64,000 nucleotides of DNA from Acidobacteriota bacterium (lineage in GTDB: Bacteria; Acidobacteriota; Thermoanaerobaculia; Multivoradales; Multivoraceae). The first letter of the stretch is position 1, and each line of letters opens with the position of its first letter. The position numbers and the translations under genes are program-made. The stretch is taken from assembly GCA_003388555.1 (NCBI GenBank), contig QQVD01000056.1, forward strand, positions 1 to 64,000, given 5' to 3'. The notes below the pieces were generated by a model that saw nothing but the letters and a program-made list of their open reading frames with translations, had not been told where the DNA came from and searched no databases. Positions 21,682 to 44,568 of the stretch are shown here, one piece after another.

Positions 21682-21885
21682 ATGGCAAAGCAGGAGAAGA
21701 AGGACACGCGGGCTCGACGCCCCGACGTGCCGCCACAGCGCACCCAGCGTTTCGAGGGCAGCGAGCAGCTGTCCGACGAGGATCTCGAGATGGTGGTCGG
21801 CGGCCTCAGCCGCGAAGCCGCGCTCAGCCGCTACTACCCGCTGCTGTATCCGGAGCTGGCGAGGCGTACGGGCGGAGGTGGCTGA
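21682..21885 (+). CDS. Putative double-glycine-leader peptide (orphan precursor)
   Basis: A 67-residue peptide. After a basic N-terminus (MAKQEKKDTRARR) it carries EQLSDEDLEMVVGG, which closely matches the end of a double-glycine leader of the type cut by C39 peptidases (compare EELSDDDLENVAGG in the three precursors about 18 kb away). Cleavage after Gly-41 would release 26 residues, LSREAALSRYYPLLYPELARRTGGGG, without cysteine but with a YYPLLYPEL patch. A GGGAG ribosome-binding site lies about 11 bases upstream of the ATG. It lacks the NHLP domain and faces the exporter genes from the opposite strand. It could be a second cargo or a signal peptide for the same exporter; this is inference. 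Confidence 0.55.
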   Translation: MAKQEKKDTRARRPDVPPQRTQRFEGSEQLSDEDLEMVVGGLSREAALSRYYPLLYPELARRTGGGG

Positions 21886-22203: not shown

Positions 22204-23343
22204 CTACAGCCTGCTCAGCTCCTCGAGCGACAGCGACTGCAGAGCGCACACCGCCGCGGTCAGTTGCCCAGCGGCCGTCTCCTCGCCGTGGCTGGCACGG
22301 CCGCGAGCCTCGTCCCTGCTGCGTCGCCACCACTCCTGCACACTCTCGCTGGCCCGCGCGGTGAGGTCGACCAGCAGGCCGAAGGCCTCGTCGCCGAGCG
22401 GCGGCTCGCCGCGGTACTGGTGCACTCTGCCGCCCTCGCGCCGGCCGTCCTCGATGCCGAGCAGGCGGCGCGCCAGCGTTGCCGAGTAGTCGTCATAGGC
22501 GGCCACCAGACCGGCGAAGTCGGCCACGAGCTCGTCGTGCAGGTGGCTGTGCAAGGCGCCGGTCATCCTCAGGGTGAGGTAGTGGGCGCACTCGTGCTCT
22601 CGGCGCACGATCATCGAATCGCGTTCCCACTGCTCCGGGGCGCGACCGAGCTCGGCCGCGGCGACTCCCGAGTAGGGGCCGCAGCTGAGGACGACGAGGC
22701 GATCCTGATACTGGTCCTTGTGCTGCCGGAGGCGCTGGAACTCGGCGCGCCACGCCGAGCCGTCGAAGTCGGACGCCTGGCGACCGGACAGCCACCTCTG
22801 CTTCCAGCGCTCGATGCGATCCCAGTTGTTGAGGCCGCGCAGGATCATCGCGCCCATCTCCGGGCGCACCGGACGCGGCTCGCCCCGCTGCGCCAGCGCC
22901 TGCACCAGCAGCTCGAAGTCACGACGGTCCCTCGCCGTGAGCACCGGCACCCTGCCGGCCACCGAGCGGTGCAGCTCGATGGTGATGCCGTCGGGGTCGT
23001 GGAACGCGACGCCGTCCTCGGTCGACGCCGGCCACTCGCCGCGCAAGGTCGCCGCGCGGTACTCGTCGGTGCAGCTGATCCCTTCACGCACCGGGAAGCG
23101 CAGCTGCACCAGCCGCCTTCGCAGCGTCGCCACGGCGCCGTCGCGCTCCGCCTCTCGCACGTAGTCGCTCCACGCCTCGCACTGCGGCTCGTCTCCCGGA
23201 GGCAGATCGCCCGGATCGAGAGGCGGCGGCAGCGGGCTGCGCTTCAGCACCTCGTCGATCGCCGCCGCCGAGCCGCCGAGATCCGCGAGCACTCGTCGAC
23301 GCAGCTGCTGGCGCCGCGCCTCGTTGACGGCCGCGCCGCTCAC
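22204..23343 (-). CDS. HExxH-motif protein at the end of the NHLP operon
   Basis: A 379-residue protein that I do not recognise as a named family. In its C-terminal half it has REHECAHYLTLRMTG, an HExxH zinc-peptidase-type motif (H-E-C-A-H), followed about 16 residues on by HSHLHDELVADFAG, which offers candidate third ligands. The N-terminal half begins with helical arginine-rich sequence and contains EGISCTDEYRAATLRGEW. No signal peptide or membrane span is visible, so it should be cytosolic. The GTG start overlaps the TGA of the ABC exporter gene by four bases, which ties it to the RiPP operon. It could be a leader or immunity protease or a catalytically dead scaffold. The G-rich heptad array follows its stop. 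Confidence 0.65.
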   Translation of the reverse strand: MSGAAVNEARRQQLRRRVLADLGGSAAAIDEVLKRSPLPPPLDPGDLPPGDEPQCEAWSDYVREAERDGAVATLRRRLVQLRFPVREGISCTDEYRAATLRGEWPASTEDGVAFHDPDGITIELHRSVAGRVPVLTARDRRDFELLVQALAQRGEPRPVRPEMGAMILRGLNNWDRIERWKQRWLSGRQASDFDGSAWRAEFQRLRQHKDQYQDRLVVLSCGPYSGVAAAELGRAPEQWERDSMIVRREHECAHYLTLRMTGALHSHLHDELVADFAGLVAAYDDYSATLARRLLGIEDGRREGGRVHQYRGEPPLGDEAFGLLVDLTARASESVQEWWRRSRDEARGRASHGEETAAGQLTAAVCALQSLSLEELSRL

Positions 23344-26300: not shown

Positions 26301-26393
26301 CGATCCGGCGTCCTCCTCGCCGCGGGTCGCGGCGGGCGGCGGGGCGGATCCGTCGGCGGCGACGGAGGCGGCCTGAGGCTCGGGACTACTCAT
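23340..26393 (-). CDS. NHLP bacteriocin export ABC transporter, permease/ATPase subunit
   Basis: A 1017-residue half-transporter of the second NHLP exporter type. The first 450 residues form a large soluble region (DTVWWVEEGEVHLFVVDIE near residue 57 resembles a cyclic-nucleotide-binding-like fold) with no C39 catalytic cysteine. A six-helix ABC permease follows (about 460-760), then the nucleotide-binding domain with Walker A GGSGSGKST near 815, signature LSGGQKQRLLIARAI near 915 and Walker B RILFMDEATSALD near 935, all intact. It should act at the inner membrane together with the C39-containing exporter, whose gene it overlaps by eight bases. Confidence 0.92.
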   Translation of the reverse strand: MSSPEPQAASVAADGSAPPPAATRGEEDAGSVLAALLSQEGEAVEAGGDRPFLIDAPDTVWWVEEGEVHLFVVDIEAGAAKGARSYFMTLDEGALIFGIDPTRYGIDAGFLAVGRMGTVLRRIELERLQQLALDDSHSAAVAAALDAWVVQLGERLTRDMAPTPVADLMLEPDDYVALQAQQTARSRRGVLWVEAAAGDLLFVSSESLNYASAPSLEQAYSLSLFPLSADTWVEGSVAEGEVVLWAHSASDVVGEERFWAGLQTFHAAVCSCEFINKRLATLDEFQRLRSKAEHASAAGEAALQELAAVMQWSSEPAVAATGPVTAIDDPLLDAAARIGAYHGMRIESHPDLRPDLPFADRLAMIAKASRFRYRQVVLREGWWKKDLGPLLATLQESGEPVALIPKGADAYVCYDPRSGETRRVNASLAEGIDYFAQSFYRPFPDGPLKALDLLRFGLHRMQPDVARLALMGILIGVLGALTPYISGQIFDAAIPQAERSLLYQFVAALLAAAFVRTAFTITQAIATLRMQGRMDYTIGAALWDRLLNLPSGFFRDFTAGDLAQRAAGINAIRDLLAGAGISAILGSLSSVFYLFLMFKYSVRLGLVAVGLTALFIGVTVTVNYWQLHFQRQMMASGGRISGLVLQLISGVAKLRVSGAENHAFRTWAAEFSDMRRLGFKVGRIQNFAEVFNGGFGVLSAMAIYFTLVSLRAVDPVGLSTGEFIAFNAAYGAFLAASMALSQASLNMLRVVPIYERLKPIVTTEPEVSETKSYPGRLSGEIELAHVHFRYDEEGPWILRDITLKIRPGEFVAFVGGSGSGKSTLMRVMLGFEIPQKGSTYYDGQELDSLDIREVRQQLGVVLQNSQLLPAELYRNIIGNSATLTVDDAWEAARMAGLEDDIKAMPMKMHTYISDGGGGLSGGQKQRLLIARAIVHRPRILFMDEATSALDNRTQAMVTKSIDGLQATRIVIAHRLSTIRNADRICVLDQGVIAEQGSYDELIALGGKFAQLAARQHV

Positions 26394-29300
26394 CGATCAG
26401 GCTCTGGTAGGGGCCCTTGACGTTCTTCATCTCTTCGTGGGTGCCTCGCTGCACGATCTTGCCGCGGTCGAGGACGAGGATCTCGTCGCAGTCGCGGATC
26501 GTCGACAGGCGGTGGGCGACGATGATGCAGGTGCAGCCGCGACGTCGCAGGCTCTCGTCGATCTTCGTCTCGGTGGTCGGATCGAGAGCGCTCGTCGCCT
26601 CGTCGAGGATCAGGATCGTCGGCTCGCCGACCAGAGCCCTGGCGATCTCGAGCCGCTGGCGCTGACCGCCGGAGAAGTTCGAGCCTCCCTCTGAGACCGC
26701 CGAGTGGTAGGCACCGTCGCGGTTCTCGATGACCTCGGCGATCGCGGCGTCCTTGCACGCCCCGGTCACCGCGACGTCGCGGATGCTCGGGTCCCACATC
26801 GCTACGTTGTCGCGGATCGAGCCGGCGAACAGGAAGACCTCCTGGTCGACCACCGCGATGGAGTTGGTGATCAGGTCCGGCGGCAGCTGCTCGAGCGGGA
26901 TCCCGTCGTAGAGGATCTGGCCCGACCACGGACGGTAGAGGCCGGTGATCAGACGCGCGATGGTCGACTTGCCGCTGCCGCTGCCGCCGACCAGGCCGAT
27001 GCGCTGGCCGGGCTGGATGGTCAGGTCGAAGCCGGTGATCAGGGCCGGCTCGAGCGGCGAGTAGCCGAACTCGAGGTTCTTGAGCTCCACCTTGCCGCTG
27101 AGCTTCAGCAGGCCCTCGGCGGCGGGATGGCTGCGCCCCTCGCGCCGGTAGCGGTGATCCTGCGGGTACCGGGTGACGTCGTCGAGGCGGTTCATGTCGG
27201 CCTCGAGCTCCTGGATCGTCGAGCCGAAGGCGACGAAGGTGTTCAGCGGCCTGGAGAAGCTGGCCATCAGGGTCTGGTAGGCGACCAGCATGCCGACGGT
27301 GAGCTCGCCGTTCATCACCTTGAGGCCGCCGAGCAGCAGGATGGTGATGGTGGTGATCGAGTTGATCAGCGTCGGCACCGAGCCGACCCAGGCGCCGAGC
27401 ATGCCGATGTCCTGCTGCGCCTGCATCGCCTTGGCCTGGTAGCCGGCCCAGCGCGAGAAGAACTCGGCCTCGCCCCCGGTGGCTTTGAGGGTCTCGATCA
27501 TGCGCAGGCCGCCCATCGCGGTGCCGGTGAGCTTGCCCTCCTCCTGGGCGAGGCGGCGGCTGGCATCGACGCGGCGGCGCGAGACCAGGCGCACCGCGAC
27601 GACATTGAGCAACGCCAGAGCGATGCACACCAGGGTCAGGCTGACCGAGTAGATCATCATCAGCGCCGCGTAGAAGAACAGCAGCAGCATGTCGATCGCG
27701 GTGGTCGCGAGCTGGCCGGAGAGCACCCGCGCGACCTTGTCGTTGATCATCACGCGCGAGCCGATCTCGCCGGCGAAGCGCTGCGAGAAGTAGCTCACCG
27801 GCAGGCGCAGGATATGGGCGAAGAACTTGCTCGACTCGACCAGCGCCAGCTTGGTCTCGAGTCGTAGCAGATAGGTCTGCTGCAGGTAGTTGAGCACCAG
27901 CTGCAGCACCATCGTCAGCCCCATGCCGAGCAGCAAGGGCTGCACGATGGCGGCGCGGCCGGCGATCAGGTACTCGTCGATGAACACCCGGCTGAAGGTC
28001 GGGATGATCAGCCCCGGGATGACCAGGAAGAGGCCGGCGAGCACCACGAACGCGAGCGCGGTGCGCGAGCCGTCGAGGCGGCGCTGCAGCGCCGGGAAGA
28101 TGCCCGGCTTGTCACCCCCGGGCTCGAAGTCGTCCCCCGGCTCGAAGGTCAGGCAGACGCCCGAGTAGGAGGCGTCGAGGTCCTCCATGTCGAGAACCCG
28201 CGGGCCCTGCGCCGGATCGTTGATGTAGACCTTGCCGCCCTTGAAGCCCTCGAGCACCACGAAGTGGTTGAAGTTCCAGAACAGGATGGCCGGGAAGGTC
28301 AGGTCGAAGAGCTGTTTCAGGTCGTTCTTGAACCCCTTGGCCACCAGCCCGTACTTGCGCGCTCCCTTGAGCACGTTGCTCGCCTTGCTGCCGTCGCGCG
28401 AGACACCGCAGTCGACCCGCAGATCCTCGAGCGCGACGAAACGCTTGTAGTGGCGCAGCACGATCGCCAGCGCCGCGGCGCCGCACTCCACCGCCTCCAT
28501 CTGCAGCACGGTGGGAGTGCGCACCCGCCGGCTGGGAGGCTTGGGCAGGTCGCTCGCCTCGTCTTCGTCGACGCGCGCCTTCGGCTTGGCTTCGCTCTCC
28601 GGCGCCGGCGCCGGTCGGTGGGCGCGGCGAGGCTTGCGCCCCTCCTCCGAAGGCGTCGGCCTCTTGCGCTGGGGGCGCACCGCCGACGGCGCGGGCGGCT
28701 TCGAGCGCAGCGCCGCCGGCTGGTCGGCGAGGCGCAGCACCAGCGACAGGTCGAACGGATCCTCCGCGGTCTTCTCGCGCTTGGAGGGCTGCTTGAACAA
28801 TCCCGCAGGAGAGGAGGCACGCGGCGCCGAGCCTTCGGCCGGAGCCGGCACGGCTTCCGCGGGGCGACCTTCAGAGCCCGTCGACGGGGCCGTGGCCGGC
28901 CTCTCGGGGCGCGCAGCGGGCTCCCGGGACTCCTGGGAGGGCCGCGCAGCAGGCGTGCGGGCTGGCGGCGCGGGCGCCGGTGGTGACACGGCGGGCGGCT
29001 TCTCCTCACGACCGCCTGTGCCCGGCGGGCCGGCCGGCTCGGCGCCGGATGGCGCGAAGCGGGTCGACAGCGGATCCGGCGCAGCGTCCGGCGGTTGACG
29101 ATCGGCCGCGACCTGCGATCGCGGAGGATCCTGCGGCGCGGGATCGGGCGGCGGATCCACTGCCGCGGGCGGATCCGGGACGGCACGCTCGCCGGAGGAT
29201 TCCGCAGACACCGACGACACCGACGGCACCGACGGCACCGACGGCACGGCGGCAGGCTCGGGGGTCCGCGGTCGCGGCTCATCCGACGGCTGCGCCTCGG

Positions 29301-29619
29301 CAGGTGGCGCCTCCGTCTCGGCCGGCGCCTGCTCGACCAGCTCGAAGACGAACTCGATCTCGCCGAAACGCACGACGTCGCCCGAACCGAGCATCGTCAC
29401 CTGATGGATGCGCACGCCGTTGACCTGGGTGCCGTTGGAGCTGCCCAGGTCCTGCACCGAATAGCCCTTGCCGGCCGGCTCGAGCAGGGCGTGCCGGCGC
29501 GAGACGGTGCCGTGCAGGATCTGCACCCCGGCCGCCTCGTCGCGGCCGATCAGGGTCGAGCCGGTGAGCGTCACGGTTTCCGCGTCGTGCCGCGGCCGGA
29601 GCAGTGCGATGTTCGCCAT
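26386..29619 (-). CDS. FHA domain-C39 peptidase-ABC transporter fusion (NHLP exporter, peptidase/permease/ATPase)
   Basis: A 1077-residue peptidase-containing ABC transporter. Residues 20-75 form an FHA domain (LIGRDE, SRRHALLE, LGSSNGTQVNG). A Pro/Ala-rich linker of about 270 residues follows. The C39 peptidase begins near residue 370 with MEAVECGAAALAIVL (catalytic Cys about 379), then FNHFVVLEG (His) and YINDPAQG (Asp), so the triad is complete. The permease spans about 500-790 and the ATPase carries GGSGSGKST near 876, FSGGQRQRLEIARAL and ILILDEATSALD. It should cut leaders after Gly-Gly and export the core. The FHA domain is unusual for this family and implies control by protein phosphorylation. 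Confidence 0.93.
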   Translation of the reverse strand: MANIALLRPRHDAETVTLTGSTLIGRDEAAGVQILHGTVSRRHALLEPAGKGYSVQDLGSSNGTQVNGVRIHQVTMLGSGDVVRFGEIEFVFELVEQAPAETEAPPAEAQPSDEPRPRTPEPAAVPSVPSVPSVSSVSAESSGERAVPDPPAAVDPPPDPAPQDPPRSQVAADRQPPDAAPDPLSTRFAPSGAEPAGPPGTGGREEKPPAVSPPAPAPPARTPAARPSQESREPAARPERPATAPSTGSEGRPAEAVPAPAEGSAPRASSPAGLFKQPSKREKTAEDPFDLSLVLRLADQPAALRSKPPAPSAVRPQRKRPTPSEEGRKPRRAHRPAPAPESEAKPKARVDEDEASDLPKPPSRRVRTPTVLQMEAVECGAAALAIVLRHYKRFVALEDLRVDCGVSRDGSKASNVLKGARKYGLVAKGFKNDLKQLFDLTFPAILFWNFNHFVVLEGFKGGKVYINDPAQGPRVLDMEDLDASYSGVCLTFEPGDDFEPGGDKPGIFPALQRRLDGSRTALAFVVLAGLFLVIPGLIIPTFSRVFIDEYLIAGRAAIVQPLLLGMGLTMVLQLVLNYLQQTYLLRLETKLALVESSKFFAHILRLPVSYFSQRFAGEIGSRVMINDKVARVLSGQLATTAIDMLLLFFYAALMMIYSVSLTLVCIALALLNVVAVRLVSRRRVDASRRLAQEEGKLTGTAMGGLRMIETLKATGGEAEFFSRWAGYQAKAMQAQQDIGMLGAWVGSVPTLINSITTITILLLGGLKVMNGELTVGMLVAYQTLMASFSRPLNTFVAFGSTIQELEADMNRLDDVTRYPQDHRYRREGRSHPAAEGLLKLSGKVELKNLEFGYSPLEPALITGFDLTIQPGQRIGLVGGSGSGKSTIARLITGLYRPWSGQILYDGIPLEQLPPDLITNSIAVVDQEVFLFAGSIRDNVAMWDPSIRDVAVTGACKDAAIAEVIENRDGAYHSAVSEGGSNFSGGQRQRLEIARALVGEPTILILDEATSALDPTTETKIDESLRRRGCTCIIVAHRLSTIRDCDEILVLDRGKIVQRGTHEEMKNVKGPYQSLIDE

Positions 29620-29625
29620 GTACGC

Positions 29626-30768
29626 TCAGCTCGCCCCGATCGCCTTCTTGAAGATCGGCACCACGTACGAGATCGGCCGGCGCTCCTCCACCGTGACCTT
29701 GGCCATGATCGGAGTGCCCGAGAAGACCTGCACCGGCGGACCGGTCGACGAGGACCAGCGGAAGCCCGACGGCGTCGCCGGCTCCTTCTCGAGCCGCGCC
29801 ACCACCTGGAAGGGCGCGCCGTCACCGGTCAGGGCGTTGACGGTGTTCTGGTTGCGCAGCGTGCGCATCAGCGACTCGGGGCTCTCCGGGTAGTCGCCGA
29901 CGGAGAGCACCTCGGCCATCATGAAACCGTACTCCTCTGGCTTGACCGTCGCCGGCGAGACCCGCACCTCCATCCCCTCCTGCACCTTCTTGCCGTCGGT
30001 CGCGGGGACGTAGAAGACCGCCGCGAGATCGCTCTCGAACGACTCCATGGTCACCAGCCTCGAGCCGCCGCCGACGAGGTCGCCGACCGTCGCCACCACC
30101 TCGATCACCCGGCCCGAGAACGGGCTGCGCACCTCGGAGCTCGATTCGCGCTCGCGCTCCAGCTCGTCGAGCTGTCGCCGGATCGCGTCGACCCGGTTCT
30201 CCTGCCCGGTCTGACGGTCCTGCTCGCCGCGGATCTGCTGCCGGATCTGGGTGATGCGCTGCTCGGTGGCGAGCACCGTCGAGCGGGTGATCAGGCCCTT
30301 CTGCAGCGACTCCCGCTGCCGCTCGAGCCTGGCCTGCTGGGCGCGCAGCTCGGCGTACAGTCCCGAGGTCACGTCGCCGGCGCCGCCCTGCGTGCTCGCC
30401 TGGGCGATCGCCTCGTCGAGCTCCTCGCGCTTGTTGCGGATGCGCAGCTCCAGCGCCTCCTGCGACAGGCGCGCCACCAGATCGCCCTGCGACACCGAAT
30501 CGCCCTCGGCGACGAGGATCTCGATCAGCCGCCCCTGGGAGCCGGCGGTGATCGAGAGCAGCCCCTCGCCCGGGATCAGGATGCCGCTGCCGTCGACCTT
30601 GGTCGACACCGTGCCGAGGAATCCCCACAGCACGATGAGGATCAGCACCGAGCCGACCGCTCCGAGCGCGATCCACCCGCGCGGCGAGGTGACCTGCATC
30701 GCCACGTCGAGCTGCTCGGGTGAGGCGAGTCGGTCGAGTGCGGCTTTGCGGAACAGCTGCTTGGCCAT
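29626..30768 (-). CDS. NHLP system HlyD-type periplasmic adaptor
   Basis: A 380-residue membrane fusion protein. One transmembrane helix (WIALGAVGSVLILIVLWGFLG) follows a short cytosolic start, then a lipoyl-like half (GQGRLIEILVAEGDSV variant: GSQGRLIEILVAEGDSVSQG), a coiled coil of about 100 residues (ELRIRNKREELDEAI... QQIRGEQDRQTGQ), the second half-motif PFSGRVIEVVATVGDLV, and a beta-barrel domain. It should bridge the ABC exporters to TolC. The ATG at 30768 has AGGAG about eight bases upstream. Its stop lies six bases before the C39 exporter start. It matches the HlyD-like secretion protein found in NHLP bacteriocin operons. Confidence 0.92.
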   Translation of the reverse strand: MAKQLFRKAALDRLASPEQLDVAMQVTSPRGWIALGAVGSVLILIVLWGFLGTVSTKVDGSGILIPGEGLLSITAGSQGRLIEILVAEGDSVSQGDLVARLSQEALELRIRNKREELDEAIAQASTQGGAGDVTSGLYAELRAQQARLERQRESLQKGLITRSTVLATEQRITQIRQQIRGEQDRQTGQENRVDAIRRQLDELERERESSSEVRSPFSGRVIEVVATVGDLVGGGSRLVTMESFESDLAAVFYVPATDGKKVQEGMEVRVSPATVKPEEYGFMMAEVLSVGDYPESPESLMRTLRNQNTVNALTGDGAPFQVVARLEKEPATPSGFRWSSSTGPPVQVFSGTPIMAKVTVEERRPISYVVPIFKKAIGAS

Positions 30769-30841: not shown

Positions 30842-31717
30842 TCATGCCCGGCCCACCAGCCAGCCCTCGAACCAGGTCTGGACCTGGGCGGAGCAGAAGA
30901 AGATCGCCGGGTAGGTCGCGAAGTAGGTGAAGATGAAGGCGTTGAGGCCCATGAAGACACCGTTGAGCAGATGGAAGGTGGCCGCCCAACCCACCAGCAG
31001 CAGGCAGCCCGGCATGCCGGTCAGCAGCACCAGCGGGAAGGCCGTCTCGAGCACGATCACCGCGCTCATCACGTAGCGCAGCCGTACGCCGCGATCCGCC
31101 AGCCCCGCCAGGAACGGATGACCGAACAGGCTGTGGCGGGCGAAGAGCGGGAAGACCTGACCCGAGCGCCAGGACTTCACGAACGCCTTGTGCCAGCCGT
31201 TCGAACAGTACGAGAGCACCGACTGCAGAGCGACGAACCAGAGCGCCCCCTGCACCACGAGCGGGTTCGAGCTCTGCATCCAGGCAAAGGTGAGGCCGAA
31301 CCAGACGATCAGCTCCATCGAGTCGGCGCCGCTCGCCTGGGGCTGCCGGGCGATCGTCAGGGCGCAGCTGGTGGCGATCACGAGACTGAGCGGGCCCAGC
31401 GGCCACGCCGACGCCGGCAGCTCGGCGCTCGACAGCACGGCGAGCAGCGCCACCACCGCGACCAGCCGGGTCAGCGGCAGCACCAGCACCGCCGGGTAGG
31501 TGGCCGGGAAGCCGATCCGCGACAGCTCGCGGAAGCGCTGCTTCTGGACGTGCCAGGCGAGCGCGCCGTCGTCGCGGAACATGCGGCGCGCCGCCAGCAA
31601 CTCGAGGCTGGCGACCAGTGAAGCCAGCGACGCCAGCACGGTGACCAGGCGCAGCATCGCCAGCGGCTCGCCGACCGCAGTCGCCAGGCGATCGAGCATC
31701 GCGACGAGCTCGCTCAA
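30842..31717 (-). CDS. HTTM/SdpB-like multi-pass membrane protein
   Basis: A 291-residue membrane protein with about seven hydrophobic segments. The central segment LSYCSNGWHKAFVKSWRSGQ, followed by FARHSLFGHP, recalls HTTM-type proteins (the fold shared by vitamin K gamma-carboxylase-like proteins and SdpB), where a W-x-K...W-x-x-G pattern follows the second or third helix. SdpB-like proteins assist maturation of the SdpC toxin in other bacteria. Here it sits inside the lanthipeptide operon, directly after a small membrane-protein gene. The TTG at 31717 abuts that gene's stop; an ATG six codons later (31699) is an alternative. Roles in immunity, maturation or redox are all possible. Confidence 0.55.
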   Translation of the reverse strand: MSELVAMLDRLATAVGEPLAMLRLVTVLASLASLVASLELLAARRMFRDDGALAWHVQKQRFRELSRIGFPATYPAVLVLPLTRLVAVVALLAVLSSAELPASAWPLGPLSLVIATSCALTIARQPQASGADSMELIVWFGLTFAWMQSSNPLVVQGALWFVALQSVLSYCSNGWHKAFVKSWRSGQVFPLFARHSLFGHPFLAGLADRGVRLRYVMSAVIVLETAFPLVLLTGMPGCLLLVGWAATFHLLNGVFMGLNAFIFTYFATYPAIFFCSAQVQTWFEGWLVGRA

Positions 31718-32269
31718 TCATCCCTCCCCACCGCCATCGGAGCCATCGCGGAGCGGCAGCGGCGAGATCGGCGGCGACCGGTAGATCAGGCACCTGCCCG
31801 CGTCCTCCGGTGGCTCGGCGCCGAGCACGATGGCGAACCGCCGCTCGCCGGCGGCGGGCGCGGGCATCGAGGCGACGACGTTGCGCAGCGCCTTGAAACC
31901 GGTCGAGGTCTGCAACCGGCTCACCATGCCCCAGGCCGAGCGGCGTGCCTGGAGAGCGTGCCCCGCCTGCTCGCGGGCGGCGTAGAAGAGCCAGAAGCCG
32001 CGGCGCACCTCCGGATTCCACACCAGCTGGCGCAGCCGCCGGCGCACGCCGTAGTCGACCGGCCGCCAGTCGCCGGGTCCCTCTTCGATCCACAGTCGCA
32101 GGTCGGCCGGCGGCAGCACGAACAGCGTCCAGTTCGGCCACAGCCCGAAGCGGTTCGCCCGCTCGAGCAGCTGGCCGATCCGGCGGCCCTCGAACTGGTT
32201 GAGGAAGGTCAGCAGGAACACCACGCCGAGCACCGACAGGGAGATCGCCGACCAGGCGTCCGGGCTCAC
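31718..32269 (-). CDS. Small single-span membrane protein, possibly SdpA-like
   Basis: A 183-residue protein with one N-terminal hydrophobic helix (ISLSVLGVVFLLTFLNQF) and a soluble domain containing NRFGLWPNWTLFVLPPADLRLWIE. That tryptophan and proline pattern faintly resembles SdpA, the partner of SdpB, but I am not confident. The domain ends with VLGAEPPEDAGRCLIYRSPP and a glycine-rich tail. The start overlaps the end of the upstream TolC gene by four bases, and its stop touches the next gene, so it belongs to the operon. It likely works with the HTTM-like protein as a membrane pair. Confidence 0.5.
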   Translation of the reverse strand: MSPDAWSAISLSVLGVVFLLTFLNQFEGRRIGQLLERANRFGLWPNWTLFVLPPADLRLWIEEGPGDWRPVDYGVRRRLRQLVWNPEVRRGFWLFYAAREQAGHALQARRSAWGMVSRLQTSTGFKALRNVVASMPAPAAGERRFAIVLGAEPPEDAGRCLIYRSPPISPLPLRDGSDGGGEG

Positions 32270-34329
32270 TCACCGGCCTCCAGTCGCGGCCTGGCGAAGG
32301 CGTACGACTCGGCGCTGGTCGCCGCGAGCAGCCTGCCGGTGGCGAAGCGCCACCGTGCCAACGCCAGCGCCTGGTCGAGCCGTGCCGAGAGCTCGTCGAG
32401 GCGCGCCGAGGTGAGCCTCGACTCGGAGGTGATGCCGTCGATGACGGTGCCGTCGCCGAGTCGGAAGCGCTCCTCGTCGGAGGCCAGGATCGCCTCGTAG
32501 CCCTCGCGGGTCTGCTCGCGCAGCCTCGCGGTGGCGATGGTCTGCTCGAGCACGCTGAGCTGGCGCGCCGCGTCGCTGCGCACCGACCTCTCGACCTCCC
32601 GCTCGTTGATCCGGGCGCTCGACTCGAGCGCCGTGGCCTGCGCCAGCTGACCCCGAGCGACCCGATTACGCACCGGGAAGTCGATGTCGATCTGCAGCTG
32701 CAGGCTCGGCCCGGCGTAGTCGCCGAGGAAGGTCTCCTCGAGACCCTCACCGAAGCTGCGCCCCTCGAACACAGCGCTGTAGGAGCCGACGATCGAGAGA
32801 TCGAAGCGGCGCTTGAGGTTGAGGCGGGCCGCCTCGCGCAGAACCTCGGCCGACTCGCGCTGCAGACGCGCCGACTCGAGGTCCCAGCGCCGGCCGAGCA
32901 GATCGCTCATCCCGGTGTCGCGCTCGCCGTCGGGCAGGGCCTGCGCCGCCCGCGGCAGCGGCTCGCTCGGCATCGGCGCCTGCTCGTAGCGATCGAGCTC
33001 GAGACCGAGCACCCGGGCGAGATCGATGCGTGCCCGGCGCAGCGCCTGCTCGGCGTCGACCACCGAGGTGCGCAGCTGTGCCAGCCGGGCCTCGACCCGT
33101 GAGATCTCGGCGGCCGGCACCTCGTCGCCCTCGATCAACCCCTCGGTGATCTCGAACAGGCGCACCTGGTTCTCCACCGAGAGGTTCAGCAGCTCGACCC
33201 GTTCGGCGGCCGCCGCCGCGTTCCAGTAGGCCTCGACCACGGCGAGCACTGTCTGCGCCGCGGCGTGGCGCTCGGCGGCCTCGGCACTGTCGACCAGCAG
33301 GCCGGCCGACTCGAGCCCGGCGCCGACCAGCTTCGCGCCGCGCCCCTTGCCGAGGGGGATCGAAGCGGCGAGCAGGAACTCCGCGGTGTAGAGGTTGGGG
33401 ACGCCGAGACCGCCGAAACGCTCGTCGAACTCCTTGCCGACGAAGTTCTCCTCGAACGAGGAGAAGCTCACCGCCGGTGAGAGCGCGATGCCGGTGCGGA
33501 ACTGCCTTGCGAAGGCCGCCTGCAGGTCGAGGCGGAAGCTCTCCTCCTCCTCGGGCAGCGGGCCGAGGTCGAGAAAGGCGCGGCGCAGCGGCGGGATCGC
33601 CAGCCGCAGCGCCCGGATCACGTTCTCCACCGAGGTGCGCTGGATCTGGATCTGCTCGGTGAGCAGCTCCTCGAACTCGGGCGGCAGGAACGGCGCCAGC
33701 ACCTCGTAGAGCCGGGTCAGCTCGGCGGCGCGCCGCAGCTGCTCGGCGGTCGGGCACTGGATGCGCTCGATGATGTTGCCGTCCGGATCGGTGATGGTGA
33801 GCACCGAGCCTTCCGGGCAGTCGGCGAAGATGCGACGACCGAAGTTGCCCTCGAGCGACTGCTCGAAGCTGTTGGCGACGTCGTCGAACGTCTGCGCCGG
33901 GACCTCGAAGTTGGAGCGCCGCTGCCTGGCGAGCGCGAGACGCCGGTCTCGCAGCACCCGCTGGCGGTAGTCGGCGGAGGTGCGCAGCACCAGGAAGTTG
34001 TCGAACTGCCCGTCGGCGACCTGCTCGAGCGCCCGCTGCTGGGCGGTGTTGGCGGCGGCGGCAAAGAGGGTCGGCGACCCCTGCAGCGCGATGCGCACCG
34101 CCTCCTCGAGAGTGAGCTCCGCGCCGTCCGCTGCGAGCGGGCGGAAGGCCGGCGCCGGGCCCCAGTCGATCCTGTCGATGATCAGGCCGTCCACGTCGGC
34201 GGCCTCCGCGCTGGTGGCCGCGAAAGCCGCCGGGCAGGCGACCAGCGCGACGAGGCCGGCAAGGGTCAGCGCCGACAGGCCGTGGCAGAGCCCGTGCCTC
34301 GGGCCGCGTTTCGTCACCGCGCCACTCAT
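32266..34329 (-). CDS. TolC family outer-membrane efflux protein (second copy)
   Basis: A 687-residue protein with a signal peptide (LTLAGLVALVACPAAFAAT) and the TolC fold: LTLEEAVRIALQGSPTLFAA opens the first repeat, and long coiled-coil stretches rich in Ala, Leu, Glu and Arg follow (ISRVEARLAQLRTSVVDAEQALRRARIDLARVLG pattern in the middle, and RLGDGTVIDGITSESRLTSA near the end). It is longer than typical TolC (about 480 residues) because of an insertion near residues 140-260. It should form the outer-membrane channel for the exporter. It overlaps the first TolC gene upstream by four bases. Confidence 0.88.
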   Translation of the reverse strand: MSGAVTKRGPRHGLCHGLSALTLAGLVALVACPAAFAATSAEAADVDGLIIDRIDWGPAPAFRPLAADGAELTLEEAVRIALQGSPTLFAAAANTAQQRALEQVADGQFDNFLVLRTSADYRQRVLRDRRLALARQRRSNFEVPAQTFDDVANSFEQSLEGNFGRRIFADCPEGSVLTITDPDGNIIERIQCPTAEQLRRAAELTRLYEVLAPFLPPEFEELLTEQIQIQRTSVENVIRALRLAIPPLRRAFLDLGPLPEEEESFRLDLQAAFARQFRTGIALSPAVSFSSFEENFVGKEFDERFGGLGVPNLYTAEFLLAASIPLGKGRGAKLVGAGLESAGLLVDSAEAAERHAAAQTVLAVVEAYWNAAAAAERVELLNLSVENQVRLFEITEGLIEGDEVPAAEISRVEARLAQLRTSVVDAEQALRRARIDLARVLGLELDRYEQAPMPSEPLPRAAQALPDGERDTGMSDLLGRRWDLESARLQRESAEVLREAARLNLKRRFDLSIVGSYSAVFEGRSFGEGLEETFLGDYAGPSLQLQIDIDFPVRNRVARGQLAQATALESSARINEREVERSVRSDAARQLSVLEQTIATARLREQTREGYEAILASDEERFRLGDGTVIDGITSESRLTSARLDELSARLDQALALARWRFATGRLLAATSAESYAFARPRLEAGE

Positions 34330-36347
34330 CGCGCCGCCTCGGGCAGGCTGACCAACGACCCGGCGTCGATCTCGGCGCCGCCGTCAGAGATCCGCACCAG
34401 GCTGCCGGTCTCGAAGCGCAGCCGGGCCAGCAGCTGGGCGTAGCGCACCTGTGCCGCGATCTGCGCCAGCAGCGCATCGGTGGTGCGCTCCTCGGTGAGG
34501 ATGGCATCGATCAGCGTCGCGCTGCCGAGGCGGAAGCGCTCGAACTCGTCCTCGACGGTGCGGTTGTACGCCTCGACGGCGGCTTCGGCGTGCACCAGCT
34601 GGGCGCGGGTGTCGATCAGCGACTGCCAGATCTCCGCCACGTTGCTGCGGATCAGACGCTCCAGGTTGCGGGCCGAGATCTGGCTCTGCGCCACCAGCGC
34701 CTGCTGCTGGCTGTAGAAGCCGCGGGCGGCGTTGTTGGCGAGTGGTCGGGCGTAGTCGAGGGCGGCGGAGGCGCTGGGCCCGACCCACGAGTCGTCGAAC
34801 AGCTCGGAGTAGGAGTCGTCCACTGCGTTGCCGAGGCTCCAGTCGGTGGTGAAGTCGAGCTGCGCCGCCAGATCCCGCTCGGCGGCGGCGAGCAGCACCC
34901 GTCCCGAGTCCTCGAGCAGCCGCGCTGCCAGCAGGTCGCGACGCTCCGAGAGCGCACCGGTGACCAGCGGCGCCGGCGGAGCACCGTCCATTCCCGGCGC
35001 CCCCTCGGGGCACTCGCCGACCGCGGTCGGCGCGTCGGCGGCGTCGTCGAGCTCGATCCCGATCGTGCGAGCGAGGTCGATCGCCGCCAGCTGCACCGCA
35101 TTGCGCGCCACCTGCAGCGAGCTGCGGGCGTTGGCCATGCGGGCGTCGATGCGCGGCAGCTCGGCCGCCGGCAGCTCGTCGGCCTCGATCAGGCCGCGGC
35201 TGAGCTCGGTGAGACGACCCTGACGCTGCAACGAGGCGTCGAAGACCTGCAGCCGACGCTGCGCCCCCAGCAGCTCCCAGTAGGCGAACGCGGTGGAGAG
35301 CGCGGTCTCCGACGCGCCGTGCAGCAGCGACGCCTCGCTGGCGTCGAAGTCGATCTCGGAGGCGCGCTCGAAGGCGCCCGTCGACACCTTGCCGCGCCCC
35401 TTCAGGAGCGGCGCCGTCAGCGAGAAGCCGATGCGGCCGGTGTACAGATCGGGGATCCCCTTGCCGCCCTTCTGCGGATCACGCGGCTTGCCCTTGTAGT
35501 TGCTGCCCTCACCGGTGAAGTCGAGGTCGGGGCTCAGTCTCAGGCCGTTGCGGAAGGTCTTGTCGAAGCCGAGGTTGAAGCTGCCGAACCAGCTCTCGTC
35601 GATGTCGGGCACGTCGCCGAGCATGGTGAGGTCGTCCTGCGCCGTCATGGCCGACTCGCGGGCATCGTCGATCAGCCCGGTGAGGATGTCGATCTCGGCG
35701 CCGATGGCGTCGTTGCGCAGTCCCTCGAGCTGCTGTCGCAGCGCCGGGTCGTTGGCGTCGGCGATCAGGATGTCGAGCAGGCCGACGTTGGTCAGGAAGT
35801 CGGGATCGAGCAGCGCCAGCTCGGCCGGGGTGAGGCTGCCGATGTCGGGATTGGCCTGCAGCCTCTGCACCACCAGGCGCGACTGGGTCAACACGTCGGC
35901 CTGGAAGTTGCCGGCGTCGATGTCCTGCTGCAGCATGTCCCGCTGCTCGCGCAGCGGCTCGAGCTGCGACTCGGTCAGCGCGTCCTGGTTGTATTCGCCG
36001 CGGACCGTGCTGCTGATCACCAGGTCGAACTGGCCCTGTGCCTCCTGCAGCAGGCCGAGCGAGAAGTCGCGATCGGTCTCACGCAGGCGCAGGTTGGGAT
36101 CGTGGGAGATCGCCAGCCGCACCGCCTCCTCGAGGTCGAGCGCCCGGGATTCGGCCGGCAGCGGCTGCCACTCCCGCGCCATCGGCTCCGGCAGCGCGCG
36201 TGCGCCGTCGTCCTCGGCCGATGCCGCGACCGGGGCCATCGCCCAGCCGGCGAGAGCCGCCGCGGCCAGGACCGCCCAGCCATGGACCCAGGCGCGTCCG
36301 CCGTCGGGGCGCCCCACTGCGATCTCGATCGTGTCCGGACTGCTCAT
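34326..36347 (-). CDS. TolC family outer-membrane efflux protein (first copy)
   Basis: A 673-residue TolC-family protein. A basic start leads to a hydrophobic signal segment (WAVLAAAALAGWAMAPVAAS). The first repeat opens with ALDLEEAVRLAISHDPNLRL, coiled-coil sequence follows (LPAAELPRIDARMANARSSLQ), and the end carries RLGSATLIDAILTEERTTDALL, a typical late TolC motif. Like its neighbour it has an extra segment of about 150 residues between the first helices. The two share architecture but are divergent, so they may form mixed channels or serve different cargo. The ATG overlaps the LanM stop by four bases (ATGA). Confidence 0.88.
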   Translation of the reverse strand: MSSPDTIEIAVGRPDGGRAWVHGWAVLAAAALAGWAMAPVAASAEDDGARALPEPMAREWQPLPAESRALDLEEAVRLAISHDPNLRLRETDRDFSLGLLQEAQGQFDLVISSTVRGEYNQDALTESQLEPLREQRDMLQQDIDAGNFQADVLTQSRLVVQRLQANPDIGSLTPAELALLDPDFLTNVGLLDILIADANDPALRQQLEGLRNDAIGAEIDILTGLIDDARESAMTAQDDLTMLGDVPDIDESWFGSFNLGFDKTFRNGLRLSPDLDFTGEGSNYKGKPRDPQKGGKGIPDLYTGRIGFSLTAPLLKGRGKVSTGAFERASEIDFDASEASLLHGASETALSTAFAYWELLGAQRRLQVFDASLQRQGRLTELSRGLIEADELPAAELPRIDARMANARSSLQVARNAVQLAAIDLARTIGIELDDAADAPTAVGECPEGAPGMDGAPPAPLVTGALSERRDLLAARLLEDSGRVLLAAAERDLAAQLDFTTDWSLGNAVDDSYSELFDDSWVGPSASAALDYARPLANNAARGFYSQQQALVAQSQISARNLERLIRSNVAEIWQSLIDTRAQLVHAEAAVEAYNRTVEDEFERFRLGSATLIDAILTEERTTDALLAQIAAQVRYAQLLARLRFETGSLVRISDGGAEIDAGSLVSLPEAAR

Positions 36348-39863: not shown

Positions 39864-40304
39864 TCAGCGGATGTCCATGTCCCCACCGACCGTGACCGAG
39901 ACGTTCGAGATCATCGCCGCGTCGCCGCCGACCTGCGTGACCTCGCACTGCACGGGGACGGCTCCGGAGCCGCCGCCCTTGCCGCCGCCGCCTCCGCCGC
40001 CGAGGATGCCGCCCGGCAGGAAACCGCCGCCCAGGATGCCACCCAGGAAGCCGCCGGCCACGTTCTCGAGGTCGTCGTCGGAGAGCTCCTCGCCCTCGGC
40101 CGCCGGGAACTGCCCCAGCGCGATGTACATCTTGGTGGGGCTGTCCTGCACCACCTCGATCTCGACCTCCTCCGGCAGCTCCTGGCCCAGGTGCCCTTCC
40201 AGCACCTTCTTGGGGTCTTTCAGCAGCGCCTGACGATAGGCCACGTTGTCGTTGGCCCACTCCTGCATCTTGTCCTGCAACTCACCGCGGGTGTATTCCG
40301 CCAT
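39864..40304 (-). CDS. NHLP-leader RiPP precursor peptide 3
   Basis: A 146-residue precursor. Residues 1-85 are a nitrile-hydratase-like leader (YTRGELQDKMQEWANDN, then ELPEEVEIEVVQDSPTKMYIAL) that ends in EELSDDDLENVAGG. Cleavage after Gly-85 leaves a 61-residue core with a glycine-rich first half (FLGGILGGGFLPGGIL, then a G/K tract), a single Cys at core position 35 (AVPVQCEVTQV) and DAAMISNVSVTVGGDMDIR at the end. The leader should guide LanM and the C39 peptidase. A GGGAG ribosome-binding site is about seven bases before the ATG. It lacks the metal motif of nitrile hydratase, so it is not that enzyme. It lies last of three tandem copies, before lanM. Confidence 0.93.
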   Translation of the reverse strand: MAEYTRGELQDKMQEWANDNVAYRQALLKDPKKVLEGHLGQELPEEVEIEVVQDSPTKMYIALGQFPAAEGEELSDDDLENVAGGFLGGILGGGFLPGGILGGGGGGGKGGGSGAVPVQCEVTQVGGDAAMISNVSVTVGGDMDIR

Positions 40305-40374
40305 CTCGTTTCTCCCTGATGTTCTTTAGTTGAATGAATGTCTGACTCGTGTCGTGGTCCGAGCGCTGGCGCGA

Positions 40375-40812
40375 TCAGACGTCCATGTTGCCGGTGACGC
40401 TCACGGTCACGTTGGAGATCATCGCGGCATCGCCCTCGACGTTGGAGACGGTGCAGTTGACCGGCACCGACCCGGAGCCGCCGCCCTTGCCGCCGCCACC
40501 ACCGCCACCGAGGATGCCGCCCGGCAGGAAGCCGCCACCCAGGATCCCGCCGAGGAAACCGCCGGCGACGTTCTCGAGGTCGTCGTCGGAGAGCTCTTCG
40601 CCCTCAGCGGCCGGGAACTGTCCCATGGCGATGTACATCTTGGTGGGCGTGTCCTGCACCACCTCGATCTCGACCTCTTCCGGCAGCTCCTGGCCGATGT
40701 GCTGCTCGAGCACCTTCTTGGGGGTCTTGAGGAGGGCGTTGCGGTAGGCGACGCTCTCGTTGGCCCACTCCTGCATCTTGTCCTGCAACTCTCCGCGCGT
40801 GTATTCCGGCAT
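40375..40812 (-). CDS. NHLP-leader RiPP precursor peptide 2
   Basis: A 145-residue precursor, nearly identical in leader to its neighbours (WANESVAYRNALLKT; QELPEEVEIEVV; EELSDDDLENVAGG). The predicted 60-residue core repeats the FLGGILGGGFLPGGIL start and the glycine tract, has one Cys at core position 35 (SVPVNCTVSNV), and ends DAAMISNVTVSVTGNMDV. Six Ser/Thr lie after the glycine tract, alternating with Val, so several dehydrations are possible but only one thioether ring per peptide. A GGAAAGGA site is about ten bases upstream of the ATG. It is flanked by 70-90-base gaps, without an obvious separate promoter. Confidence 0.93.
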   Translation of the reverse strand: MPEYTRGELQDKMQEWANESVAYRNALLKTPKKVLEQHIGQELPEEVEIEVVQDTPTKMYIAMGQFPAAEGEELSDDDLENVAGGFLGGILGGGFLPGGILGGGGGGGKGGGSGSVPVNCTVSNVEGDAAMISNVTVSVTGNMDV

Positions 40813-40846
40813 GCCTCGGTCCTTTCCGTTCGCTCGTTCTCTGGTC

Positions 40847-40873
40847 TACTGACTTCTGGTTTACTGACTTCTG
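40847..40873. repeat. Direct repeat TACTGACTTCTG, two copies 15 bases apart
   Basis: Two perfect 12-base copies sit in the gap between precursor genes 1 and 2, separated by three bases. In the minus-strand transcript they read CAGAAGTCAGTA. They may be slippage or an RNA-processing site; nothing else is visible there. Confidence 0.6.
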
Positions 40874-40900
40874 CTTTCTGCTGCGCGAGGTCGCTGCGTG

Positions 40901-41338
40901 TCAGACGGTCATGTTGCCGTCGACCGACACCGACACGTTGGAGATCATCGCGGCGTCCTGACCGACGTCGGTGACGGTGCAGGTGACCTGCGCCGCGCCG
41001 CCGCCACCCTTGCCGCCGCCGCCACCGCCGCCGCCGAGGATGCCGCCCGGCAGGAAGCCGCCACCCAGGATGCCGCCCAGGAAGCCGCCGGCCACGTTCT
41101 CGAGGTCGTCGTCGGAGAGCTCCTCGCCCTCGGCCGCCGCGAACTGCCCCAGCGCGATGTACATCTTGGTCGGCGTGTCCTGCACCACCTCGACCTCGAA
41201 CTCCTCGGGGAACTCGTAGCCGACGTGCTGCTCGAGCACCTTCTTGGGGGTCTTCAGCAGCGCGTTGCGGTAGGCGACGTTGTCGTTCGCCCACTCCTGC
41301 ATCTTGTCCTGCAGCTCTCCACGGGTGTATTCGGGCAT
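40901..41338 (-). CDS. NHLP-leader RiPP precursor peptide 1
   Basis: A 145-residue precursor and the first of three tandem paralogues in transcription order. The leader is the most divergent of the set (QHVGYEFPEEFEVEVV) but ends in the same EELSDDDLENVAGG. The 60-residue core begins FLGGILGGGFLPGGIL, carries a glycine tract with one Lys, one Cys at position 35 (AAQVTCTVTDV) and finishes DAAMISNVSVSVDGNMTV. Seven Ser/Thr follow the glycine tract, none before it. The ATG has a strong AGGAGGAG site eight bases upstream. A sigma-54-like promoter lies about 145 bases upstream, so this gene probably leads the transcript. Confidence 0.93.
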   Translation of the reverse strand: MPEYTRGELQDKMQEWANDNVAYRNALLKTPKKVLEQHVGYEFPEEFEVEVVQDTPTKMYIALGQFAAAEGEELSDDDLENVAGGFLGGILGGGFLPGGILGGGGGGGGKGGGGAAQVTCTVTDVGQDAAMISNVSVSVDGNMTV

Positions 41339-41480: not shown

Positions 41481-41496
41481 TGCAGCCACGATGCCA
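41481..41496 (-). promoter_or_regulatory. Sigma-54 (-24/-12) promoter candidate for the precursor operon
   Basis: On the minus strand the sequence reads TGGCATCGTGGCTGCA. Compared with the consensus TGGCACG-N4-TTGCW it keeps the invariant GG and GC at exactly the right spacing, with three mismatches. Transcription would begin near 41470, giving a leader of about 130 bases before precursor 1. The cluster encodes its own sigma-54 activator, which strengthens the case. It is imperfect, so a chance match cannot be excluded. Confidence 0.5.
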
Positions 41497-43258: not shown

Positions 43259-44545
43259 TCAACGCTGCCTCCTGTCGTTGCTGATCGCGGACGAAGGCGT
43301 GGTGGCCGGGCCCCCGGTCGCCTCCGCCCGCTCCGGCTTCAGCCGGTGATGTCTCAAGAAGTCCATGAATCGCTGGTAGTCCTGGGAATCGACGCCGAAC
43401 AGCGGCAGCAGCTCCTGGTAGCTGCCCGAACAGCGGCGCAGCCCGGCCTCGACGATGCGCTGCACCTCGGCGCGGTTGAGGTCGCGGTCGAGGAACGGCC
43501 GGTGTACGGACTCCCAGAACGAGCCCTCGCCACGGGCCATCCTCTCGACCAGCTCGCGGCTGACGTCGCTGGACGAAGCGCCGGAGTGGCGCAGGACCTG
43601 CTCGACGTCGGAGGGCCGGATGGTGTGACCGTCGCACATCGCGTAGCCGATCGTCGCGACGCTGAGCAGCTCGCGCACGTTGCCGGGCCAGTCGTACTCG
43701 GCGAGCAGCTCGATCGACCGCGCCGAGAAGCGCTTGCGTTCTCCGTAGCGCTCGGCGAGCTGACGCATGGCGCGCTCGAGCAGCAGCAGCCAGTCGTCGT
43801 CGCGCTCGCGCAACGGCGGCATCTCGACCACGAAGTTACGCAGCCGGTAGAAGAGGTCCTCGCGGAACTCGTGCTCGGCGATGAGCTCGCGCAGCGGCCG
43901 GTTGGTGGCGGCGACCACCCGCACGTCGACCCGCTGCGAGCGCTCTGCGCCGAGCGGTTGGATCTCTCCGCTCGACAGCGCCCGCAGCAGCATCACCTGG
44001 GCGTCCATGTGCAGGTCGGCGACCTCGTCGAGGAAGACCGTTCCTCCCTCGGCCTGGGCGAAACACCCCTTGCGCCGCCCGAAGGCCCCGGTGAAGCTGC
44101 CCTTCTCGTGTCCGAAGAGCTCGCTCACCGTCAGGTTGCCCTCGCGGTACTGGGGGCAGTTCACCGACACCATCGGACCGCGGCGTGGGCTCAGCAGGTG
44201 CACGGTCTGCGCCGCGAGCTCCTTGCCGACTCCGCTCTCGCCGATCACCAGCACCGGTTCGGCGAAGGCCGCGAACTTGCGCAGCTGCTCGAGCGCCCGC
44301 ACCAGCGCCGGCGAGCGGCCGACGATGTGCACCACCCGATTCTCGCCCCAGTCGGCGACCGAGCGCGCCCGCACCATGTCGGCGACGCCGCACAGGTCTC
44401 CGTTCGGCTTCGGCTGGCGAAGCAGCGCCCGGCTTCCGGTCGCCGCCTGTCGTCCTCCACTCACTTCGATCGTCTCGGCCCGCACCACTCCCCCTCGAGA
44501 GTCGACTCGAACCGGATCACGCAGTTCACGGCCCCGGCAGGTCAT
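43259..44545 (-). CDS. Sigma-54-interacting transcriptional activator (bEBP)
   Basis: A 428-residue AAA+ activator. The central domain has Walker A GESGVGKE, the sigma-54 contact loop GSFTGA (a variant of GAFTGA), GGTVFLDEVADLH as Walker B, and LRERDDDWLLL and YDWPGNVRELL downstream. The C-terminal LRRCSGSYQELLPLFGV followed by SQDYQRFMDFLRHH fits a FIS-like helix-turn-helix. About 75 N-terminal residues hold no receiver, GAF or PAS domain, so the activating signal is not obvious. I chose the ATG at 44545, with GGAG ten bases upstream; GTG 44563 is an alternative. It is the first gene of the RiPP locus and probably turns on the precursors. Confidence 0.88.
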   Translation of the reverse strand: MTCRGRELRDPVRVDSRGGVVRAETIEVSGGRQAATGSRALLRQPKPNGDLCGVADMVRARSVADWGENRVVHIVGRSPALVRALEQLRKFAAFAEPVLVIGESGVGKELAAQTVHLLSPRRGPMVSVNCPQYREGNLTVSELFGHEKGSFTGAFGRRKGCFAQAEGGTVFLDEVADLHMDAQVMLLRALSSGEIQPLGAERSQRVDVRVVAATNRPLRELIAEHEFREDLFYRLRNFVVEMPPLRERDDDWLLLLERAMRQLAERYGERKRFSARSIELLAEYDWPGNVRELLSVATIGYAMCDGHTIRPSDVEQVLRHSGASSSDVSRELVERMARGEGSFWESVHRPFLDRDLNRAEVQRIVEAGLRRCSGSYQELLPLFGVDSQDYQRFMDFLRHHRLKPERAEATGGPATTPSSAISNDRRQR

Positions 44546-44568
44546 CCCGCCTGGCTCCGTCACTTCTT

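What the first reader, a model, noticed from the sequence alone, without database searches (positions are those of the whole stretch)
39864..41338. Precursor cores combine a glycine-rich half, a single Cys and an invariant C-terminal block
Each predicted 60-61-residue core starts FLGGILGGGFLPGGIL, runs through a glycine tract with one Lys, has exactly one Cys at core position 35, and ends with DAAMISNV followed by alternating Val and Ser/Thr. One Cys allows only one thioether ring per peptide, although six or seven Ser/Thr are available, so the product may be mostly dehydrated, dimeric, or joined in some other way. The core lacks the many Cys of typical lanthipeptides.
Basis: partly seen in the sequence, partly recalled or inferred. 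Interest (0 to 1): 0.78.

Follow-up and report, generated by a model that had tools for sequence, protein, structure and literature searches.

The report
One-ring lanthipeptide precursors with glycine tails
Three side-by-side genes in an uncultured acidobacterium encode secreted peptides that probably each carry a single sulfur-linked ring, and they belong to a little-noticed, widely spread family of one-ring peptides that appears to be switched on by its own dedicated regulator.

Summary
Three tandem minus-strand genes (41338-40901, 40812-40375, 40304-39864) encode NHLP-leader precursors with cores of 60, 60 and 61 residues and one Cys, at core position 35. Core residues 1-16 and 43-50 (DAAMISNV) are identical despite silent DNA changes. 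A complete class II LanM is next door, followed by TolC, HlyD and C39-peptidase ABC export genes. The single Cys is not an oddity. Twenty-eight distinct related NHLP cores from Acidobacteriota, Verrucomicrobiota and a deltaproteobacterium each hold exactly one Cys and, 7-13 residues later, an aligned Thr/Ser in 28 of 28. The window LanM nests in a supported LanM clade serving such cores. An orthologous sigma-54 activator and a sigma-54 promoter accompany the family; the window has both. Best reading: one (methyl)lanthionine per peptide, from Cys35 to a downstream Ser/Thr (Ser48 favoured). The 29-residue hydrophobic glycine tail looks like a lineage-specific addition. The window core itself is not demonstrably homologous to the family cores. 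Chemistry and activity are untested. This is a new variant of a known kind: an NHLP-leader class II lanthipeptide.

The parts
40901..41338 (-). Precursor P1 (145 aa; leader 1-85 ending VAGG, core 60 aa, Cys35)
   Evidence: TIGR03793 62.5 bits; sequence
40375..40812 (-). Precursor P2 (145 aa; core 60 aa, Cys35)
   Evidence: TIGR03793 65.1 bits
39864..40304 (-). Precursor P3 (146 aa; core 61 aa, Cys35)
   Evidence: TIGR03793 68.9 bits
36344..39715 (-). LanM class II lanthipeptide synthetase, CCG-type zinc site (HVCCGNLG, residues 976-983)
   Evidence: TIGR03897 450 bits against cut-off 304; PF13575 and PF05147; catalytic residues by alignment to LicM2/CylM
41481..41496 (-). Candidate sigma-54 promoter TGGCATCGTGGCTGCA, 158 nt upstream of P1 start
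   Evidence: 10 of 500 shuffles score as well; near-perfect sites at similar places in most relatives
43259..44563 (-). Sigma-54 AAA+ activator with GSFTGA motif, conserved upstream of this precursor family
   Evidence: PF00158; 50-57% identity over about 350 aa to 13 cluster-linked orthologues against at most 231 bits for any other protein of its own genome
39716..39863 (-). Intergenic double hairpin between P3 and LanM, possible attenuator that favours precursor over enzyme
   Evidence: RNA fold -84.7 kcal/mol, z -4.7, 0 of 200 shuffles
34326..36347 (-). TolC-family outer membrane protein 1
   Evidence: PF02321; weak TIGR01844
32266..34329 (-). TolC-family outer membrane protein 2
   Evidence: PF02321
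30842..32269 (-). Two unidentified ORFs in the operon (183 aa at 31718-32269; 291-aa membrane protein at 30842-31717)
   Evidence: no Pfam or NCBIfam hit; the 291-aa protein has one paralogue in its own genome and none in 395 other Acidobacteriota
29626..30768 (-). HlyD-type adaptor of NHLM export system
   Evidence: TIGR03794 309 bits
26386..29619 (-). C39-peptidase ABC transporter with N-terminal FHA domain; expected to cut after VAGG
   Evidence: TIGR03796 1093 bits; PF03412 and PF00498
23340..26393 (-). Second NHLM ABC transporter
   Evidence: TIGR03797 907 bits
22204..23343 (-). DUF7005 protein, recurrent neighbour of NHLP exporters
   Evidence: PF22541 343 bits; found beside ABC2 and NHLP in Clostridia and Verrucomicrobiota loci

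Best explanation
The locus is a class II lanthipeptide cluster with nitrile-hydratase-like leaders (NHLP). A sigma-54 activator turns on a promoter upstream of P1, and the three precursors are made in excess over LanM because of a leaky hairpin (both inferred). LanM binds the leader and dehydrates one or more downstream Ser/Thr. It then adds the only Cys (core 35) to one of them, giving a single (methyl)lanthionine ring with Cys on the N-terminal side. Ser48, in the invariant DAAMISNV block, is the favoured partner by position, with Ser/Thr38 as the alternative. The C39 domain of the ABC transporter cuts after VAGG and the peptide leaves through HlyD and TolC. The hydrophobic glycine-rich first half stays unmodified and is a lineage-specific addition, perhaps for membrane or partner contact. 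Shown here: genes, motifs, homologies, conservation, LanM phylogeny, regulator orthology. Inferred: chemistry, ring partner, cleavage site, export and function.
For: Leader and enzyme families score over curated cut-offs. LanM dehydratase residues are kept (D252, H254, K274, D349, H351, N354, D366, R511, and Ser517 at the CylM Thr512 place), and the zinc-ligand motifs WCNGAPG (933-939) and HVCCGNLG (976-983) are present (CylM roles from PMC4550811). In 28 of 28 distinct related cores there is exactly one Cys and an aligned Thr/Ser 7-13 residues C-terminal; no other column has Ser/Thr in more than 14. One core (G092, FLDHNCNKAQGGINTHVEIKLV) has a single Ser/Thr, so any thioether there must be Cys6-Thr15; three cores have no Ser/Thr before Cys. 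[NG][ST] sits in that position in 24 of 28 against a shuffled mean of 8.2 and maximum of 16. Among 65 other NHLP cores fetched, 15 have one Cys and 4 have that spacing. The window LanM falls in a 12-member clade (99/88), joined to its sisters at 98/92, whose other members serve single-Cys cores. The regulator group and sigma-54 sites recur. In the window copies Ser/Thr38, 48, 51 and 53 are shared, and 43-50 is under strict purifying selection.
Against: The window core is not shown to be homologous to the family cores. A profile of the family scores window cores no better than shuffles, as do pairwise alignments; only leader, enzyme, regulator and the one-Cys pattern link them. The spacing Cys35 to Ser48 (13) is at the edge of the family range. 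The clade's G039 core could not be read cleanly and G055's is cut off. P2 and P3 also have Ser before Cys, so the opposite ring direction is possible there. No mass data exist.
Confidence: 0.6

Rival explanations
1. LanM makes one ring, but to a residue other than Ser48: Cys35 to Ser/Thr38 (C-x-x-S/T, conserved in all three) or to an upstream Ser (28 or 30).
For: Ser/Thr38 is in all three copies. Upstream Ser/Thr occur in 25 of 28 relatives.
Against: P1 has only Thr34 before Cys, adjacent to it, and upstream positions are not conserved in the family. Family spacing is 7-13, not 3.
Confidence: 0.25
2. The peptides are dehydrated but not cyclised, or are joined by a disulfide or intermolecular thioether into a homo- or heterodimer of the three paralogues.
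For: Several Ser/Thr and only one Cys. Three co-encoded paralogues would allow pairing.
Against: LanM keeps its zinc-ligand motifs. The conserved one-Cys plus one-Thr pairing also occurs in clusters where only one precursor was found.
Confidence: 0.15
3. The cores are unmodified glycine-rich secreted bacteriocins resembling Gly-rich microcins, and LanM acts on another peptide.
For: Hydrophobic glycine-rich N-terminal half under strict conservation. Another GG-leader peptide lies at 21685-21885.
Against: The precursors sit directly upstream of the only LanM found in the genome and carry a leader of the type that goes with LanMs of this clade. The Cys is invariant.
Confidence: 0.07
4. The Cys becomes a thiazole or another heterocycle, as in the Thermoanaerobaculia ThaA/ThaO system.
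For: Same bacterial class; ThaO converts a Gly-Cys motif to thiazole beside a LanM (PMC13083261).
Against: Cys35 follows T, N or Q, not Gly. No GMC oxidoreductase was seen among the scanned proteins in and around the cluster.
Confidence: 0.03

Closest known systems
Phaeornamide (Pseudophaeobacter; PhaA/PhaM, NHLP leader)
   Same: NHLP precursor, LanM, one methyllanthionine ring (PMC9505594); the Pseudophaeobacter locus L115 has a core GRSCTVTIM with one Cys
   Different: 9-residue core, Arg-to-ornithine conversion, hydroxylation and fatty acylation; no GNAT or arginase identified in the cluster here; its LanM is distant in the tree
ThaA/ThaM/ThaO and TheA (Thermoanaerobaculia)
   Same: Class II lanthipeptide in the same bacterial class (PMC13083261)
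   Different: Cys-rich core, two rings, thiazole by a GMC oxidoreductase
Prochlorosins (ProcM)
   Same: CCG-type LanM; the Verrucomicrobiota relatives show many scattered precursors and one LanM
   Different: Nif11 leaders, not NHLP; cores highly diverse and usually with more than one Cys (own knowledge)
Roseocin and its NHLP/LanM relatives
   Same: NHLP leader with class II LanM
   Different: Extensive bridging in roseocin; in that survey NHLP leaders go with CHG-type LanM (PMC10027976), whereas here they go with CCG-type
Nostolysamides (NpuA/NpuM/NpuN)
   Same: Class II lanthipeptide; related GNAT clusters carry NHLP or Nif11 leaders (PMC13060382)
   Different: GNAT acyltransferase acting on Lys1 there; none identified in the cluster here

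Membership tests
NHLP (TIGR03793) RiPP precursors | Nitrile-hydratase-alpha-like leader ending in a GG site | tested here: met
   62.5-68.9 bits against cut-off 50.9, ending at residue 85 = GG
Class II lanthipeptides | Bifunctional LanM with intact dehydratase and cyclase residues beside the precursor | tested here: met
   TIGR03897 450 bits; residues
Class II lanthipeptides | (Methyl)lanthionine in the product | not testable with these tools
   needs mass spectrometry
Class II lanthipeptides | Core holds at least one Cys and Ser/Thr | tested here: met
   one Cys, 5-8 Ser/Thr
One-Cys NHLP/LanM family with sigma-54 regulator (defined here) | Exactly one Cys and a Ser/Thr 7-13 residues later | tested here: met
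   Cys35 and Ser48 at +13 in all three
One-Cys NHLP/LanM family (defined here) | LanM in the clade serving such cores | tested here: met
   98/92 and 99/88 support
One-Cys NHLP/LanM family (defined here) | Orthologous sigma-54 activator and sigma-54 promoter upstream | tested here: met
   the window promoter is weaker than most of the set, and a 645-aa ORF lies between regulator and precursors
One-Cys NHLP/LanM family (defined here) | Core sequence homology to the [NG][ST]xVEINASLF block | tested here: inconclusive
   not above shuffles by profile or pairwise score
Selidamides | GNAT acyltransferase in the cluster | tested here: not met
   no GNAT hit among operon proteins; the only GNAT domain seen is at 4517-5668, about 17 kb beyond the DUF7005 end of the cluster

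The most novel reading that the evidence does not exclude
A sigma-54-controlled family of minimal lanthipeptides, spread over Acidobacteriota, Verrucomicrobiota and a deltaproteobacterium, each built on a single ring closed backwards from one Cys to one Thr/Ser by a CCG-type LanM. In this lineage the ring is carried on a 29-residue hydrophobic polyglycine tail that acts as a membrane or partner anchor.
Probability: 0.35. Interest if true: 0.66.

Novelty: new variant of a known kind. Interest (0 to 1): 0.5.

Why it matters
If true, a conserved one-ring product with a dedicated sigma-54 activator suggests a secreted signal or regulated effector rather than a rapidly diversifying antibiotic. It also offers a minimal substrate for asking how a LanM picks one Ser/Thr among many. 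The relative with a single Thr in its core (G092) makes the ring prediction directly testable.

Tried and rejected
A search of genome contigs with the intact precursor found no relative; relatives came only with the family alignment. A search with the C-terminal core alone found nothing convincing outside this genome in 98 relatives. Homology of the window core to family cores by profile HMM and by Smith-Waterman against shuffles was not significant, so the by-eye match DAAMISNVSV/DGAMNTVVEI is not used as evidence. The two ORFs between TolC and HlyD reminded me of SdpA/SdpB; there is no family hit, one paralogue only, and the single-sequence AlphaFold model (mean pLDDT 46.7) is useless, so no claim is made. 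A weak hit of the 66-aa GG peptide in G003 lies in what looks like an unrelated oxidoreductase gene and was dropped. Two scripts stopped on option errors before the profile test ran; the core table and alignment printed are valid.

Full report
Observation. The outer two are 84 and 86% identical to the middle copy. Each has an 85-residue leader without Cys that ends in VAGG and a core of 60, 60 or 61 residues. Cys is at core position 35 in all three; the single Lys is at 25, 24 and 24. Ser/Thr counts are 7, 8 and 5, so 'six or seven' is slightly off. Codon comparison shows that the sameness is selected. Core 1-16 and 43-50 have no amino-acid differences although synonymous differences per site are 0.22 and 0.50. 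The nonsynonymous/synonymous ratio is 0.19 in the leader, 0.56 in core 17-34, 1.1 in core 35-42 and 0.49 from core 51 to the end.

What they are. All three leaders pass the NCBIfam cut-off for TIGR03793, the NHLP RiPP leader; the nitrile hydratase hits fall on the leader only. The next gene (39715-36344) is a full-length LanM (TIGR03897, 450 bits). By alignment to LicM2 and CylM it keeps the dehydratase residues, and it has a CCG-type zinc site (residue roles from PMC4550811). Downstream are two TolC proteins, two unidentified ORFs, HlyD (TIGR03794), a C39-peptidase ABC transporter with an FHA domain (TIGR03796), a second ABC transporter (TIGR03797) and a DUF7005 protein. This is a complete export system of the NHLM type.

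The single Cys is a family trait. Searching relatives and named genomes with the precursor and then with an alignment gave NHLP precursors in other Thermoanaerobaculia and further Acidobacteriota (Holophagae, Terriglobia, SCN 69-37), in three Verrucomicrobiota genomes and in one deltaproteobacterium. In 28 distinct cores there is exactly one Cys, and an aligned Thr or Ser 7-13 residues later in 28 of 28 (25 Thr, 3 Ser); no other column has Ser/Thr in more than 14. The commonest form ends [NG]-T-x-V-E-I-N-A-S-L-F. Three cores have no Ser/Thr before Cys, and one (G092) has a single Ser/Thr in all. Among 65 other NHLP cores fetched in the same searches only 15 have one Cys and 4 have that spacing; since family and control were split partly by the core itself, this contrast is descriptive. 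Exceptions among high-scoring leaders are the cores of G039 and G045, whose frames run on or end near a contig edge and which I could not interpret, and G055, cut off by its contig.

Does the window belong? The window leaders align with the family and share its invariant positions. The LanM tree (43 rows, IQ-TREE) puts the window enzyme with four Thermoanaerobaculaceae-type enzymes at 98/92, inside a 12-row clade at 99/88 whose other members serve one-Cys cores where these could be read. A sigma-54 AAA+ activator lies upstream of the precursor in 13 of these clusters, with 50-57% identity over about 350 residues to the window's 43259-44563 protein, while the best other match in the window's own genome scores 231 bits. 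Most relatives have near-perfect TGGCAC-N5-TTGC sites 73-195 nt before the precursor start. The window has TGGCATCGTGGCTGCA 158 nt before P1 (10 of 500 shuffles as good) and none before P2 or P3, consistent with one transcript. What does not hold is sequence homology of the cores: a family profile and pairwise alignments do not lift the window cores above shuffles. The relation therefore rests on leader, enzyme, regulator and pattern. The glycine tail has no counterpart as long elsewhere; short glycine runs occur in the G026, G093 and Terriglobia cores.

Mechanism. The most economical reading is one (methyl)lanthionine per peptide with Cys35 on the N-terminal side. Ser48 is favoured because it lies in the invariant block and within the family's range, at its edge; Ser/Thr38 is the main alternative. 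A strong double hairpin between P3 and LanM (z -4.7) could lower enzyme expression relative to precursor. Cleavage after VAGG by the C39 domain follows from what is known of these families. Function is unknown; export machinery and regulation suggest a secreted signal or antagonistic peptide, which is inference only.

Compared with the known. Phaeornamide already shows that an NHLP precursor and a LanM can give a peptide with a methyllanthionine ring (PMC9505594). A class II lanthipeptide of Thermoanaerobaculia has been made in E. coli (ThaA, PMC13083261), with two rings and a thiazole. A survey of RosM relatives found NHLP leaders paired with CHG-type LanM (PMC10027976), unlike the CCG-type here. 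In the held literature I found no description of a one-Cys, sigma-54-linked family, but that library is partial. I rate this a new variant of a known kind.

Noticed in passing
21685-21885 (+): 66-aa ORF MAKQEKK...EQLSDEDLEMVVGG followed by LSREAALSRYYPLLYPELARRTGGGG: a GG-leader-like peptide without Cys near the end of the export operon; weak match to CTB bacteriocins.
   Followed up: partly
30842-32269: Two unidentified operon genes (183 and 291 aa). The 291-aa membrane protein was found in no other of 395 Acidobacteriota genomes, only as a paralogue at G000:C7.
   Followed up: partly
L082-L092: Verrucomicrobiota genomes carry many scattered, nearly identical one-Cys NHLP precursors (KDDTYTCNESIGGFNTRNEFSASVF) but a single LanM elsewhere, an arrangement like prochlorosins.
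   Followed up: partly
22204-23343: DUF7005 (with an HECAH motif) also sits beside NHLP and ABC2 genes in Clostridia and Verrucomicrobiota loci; a candidate conserved accessory protein of NHLP systems.
   Followed up: no
26386-29619: The C39 ABC transporter carries an N-terminal FHA domain and a long Pro/Ala-rich linker before the peptidase domain, which may hint at phosphorylation-dependent control of export.
   Followed up: no
L015 (1417 on -), L063: Short GG-leader-like peptides in G049 and G060 end in polyglycine right after the GG site (WSGDEPGGGGTGG, WDGNGGGGG).
   Followed up: no
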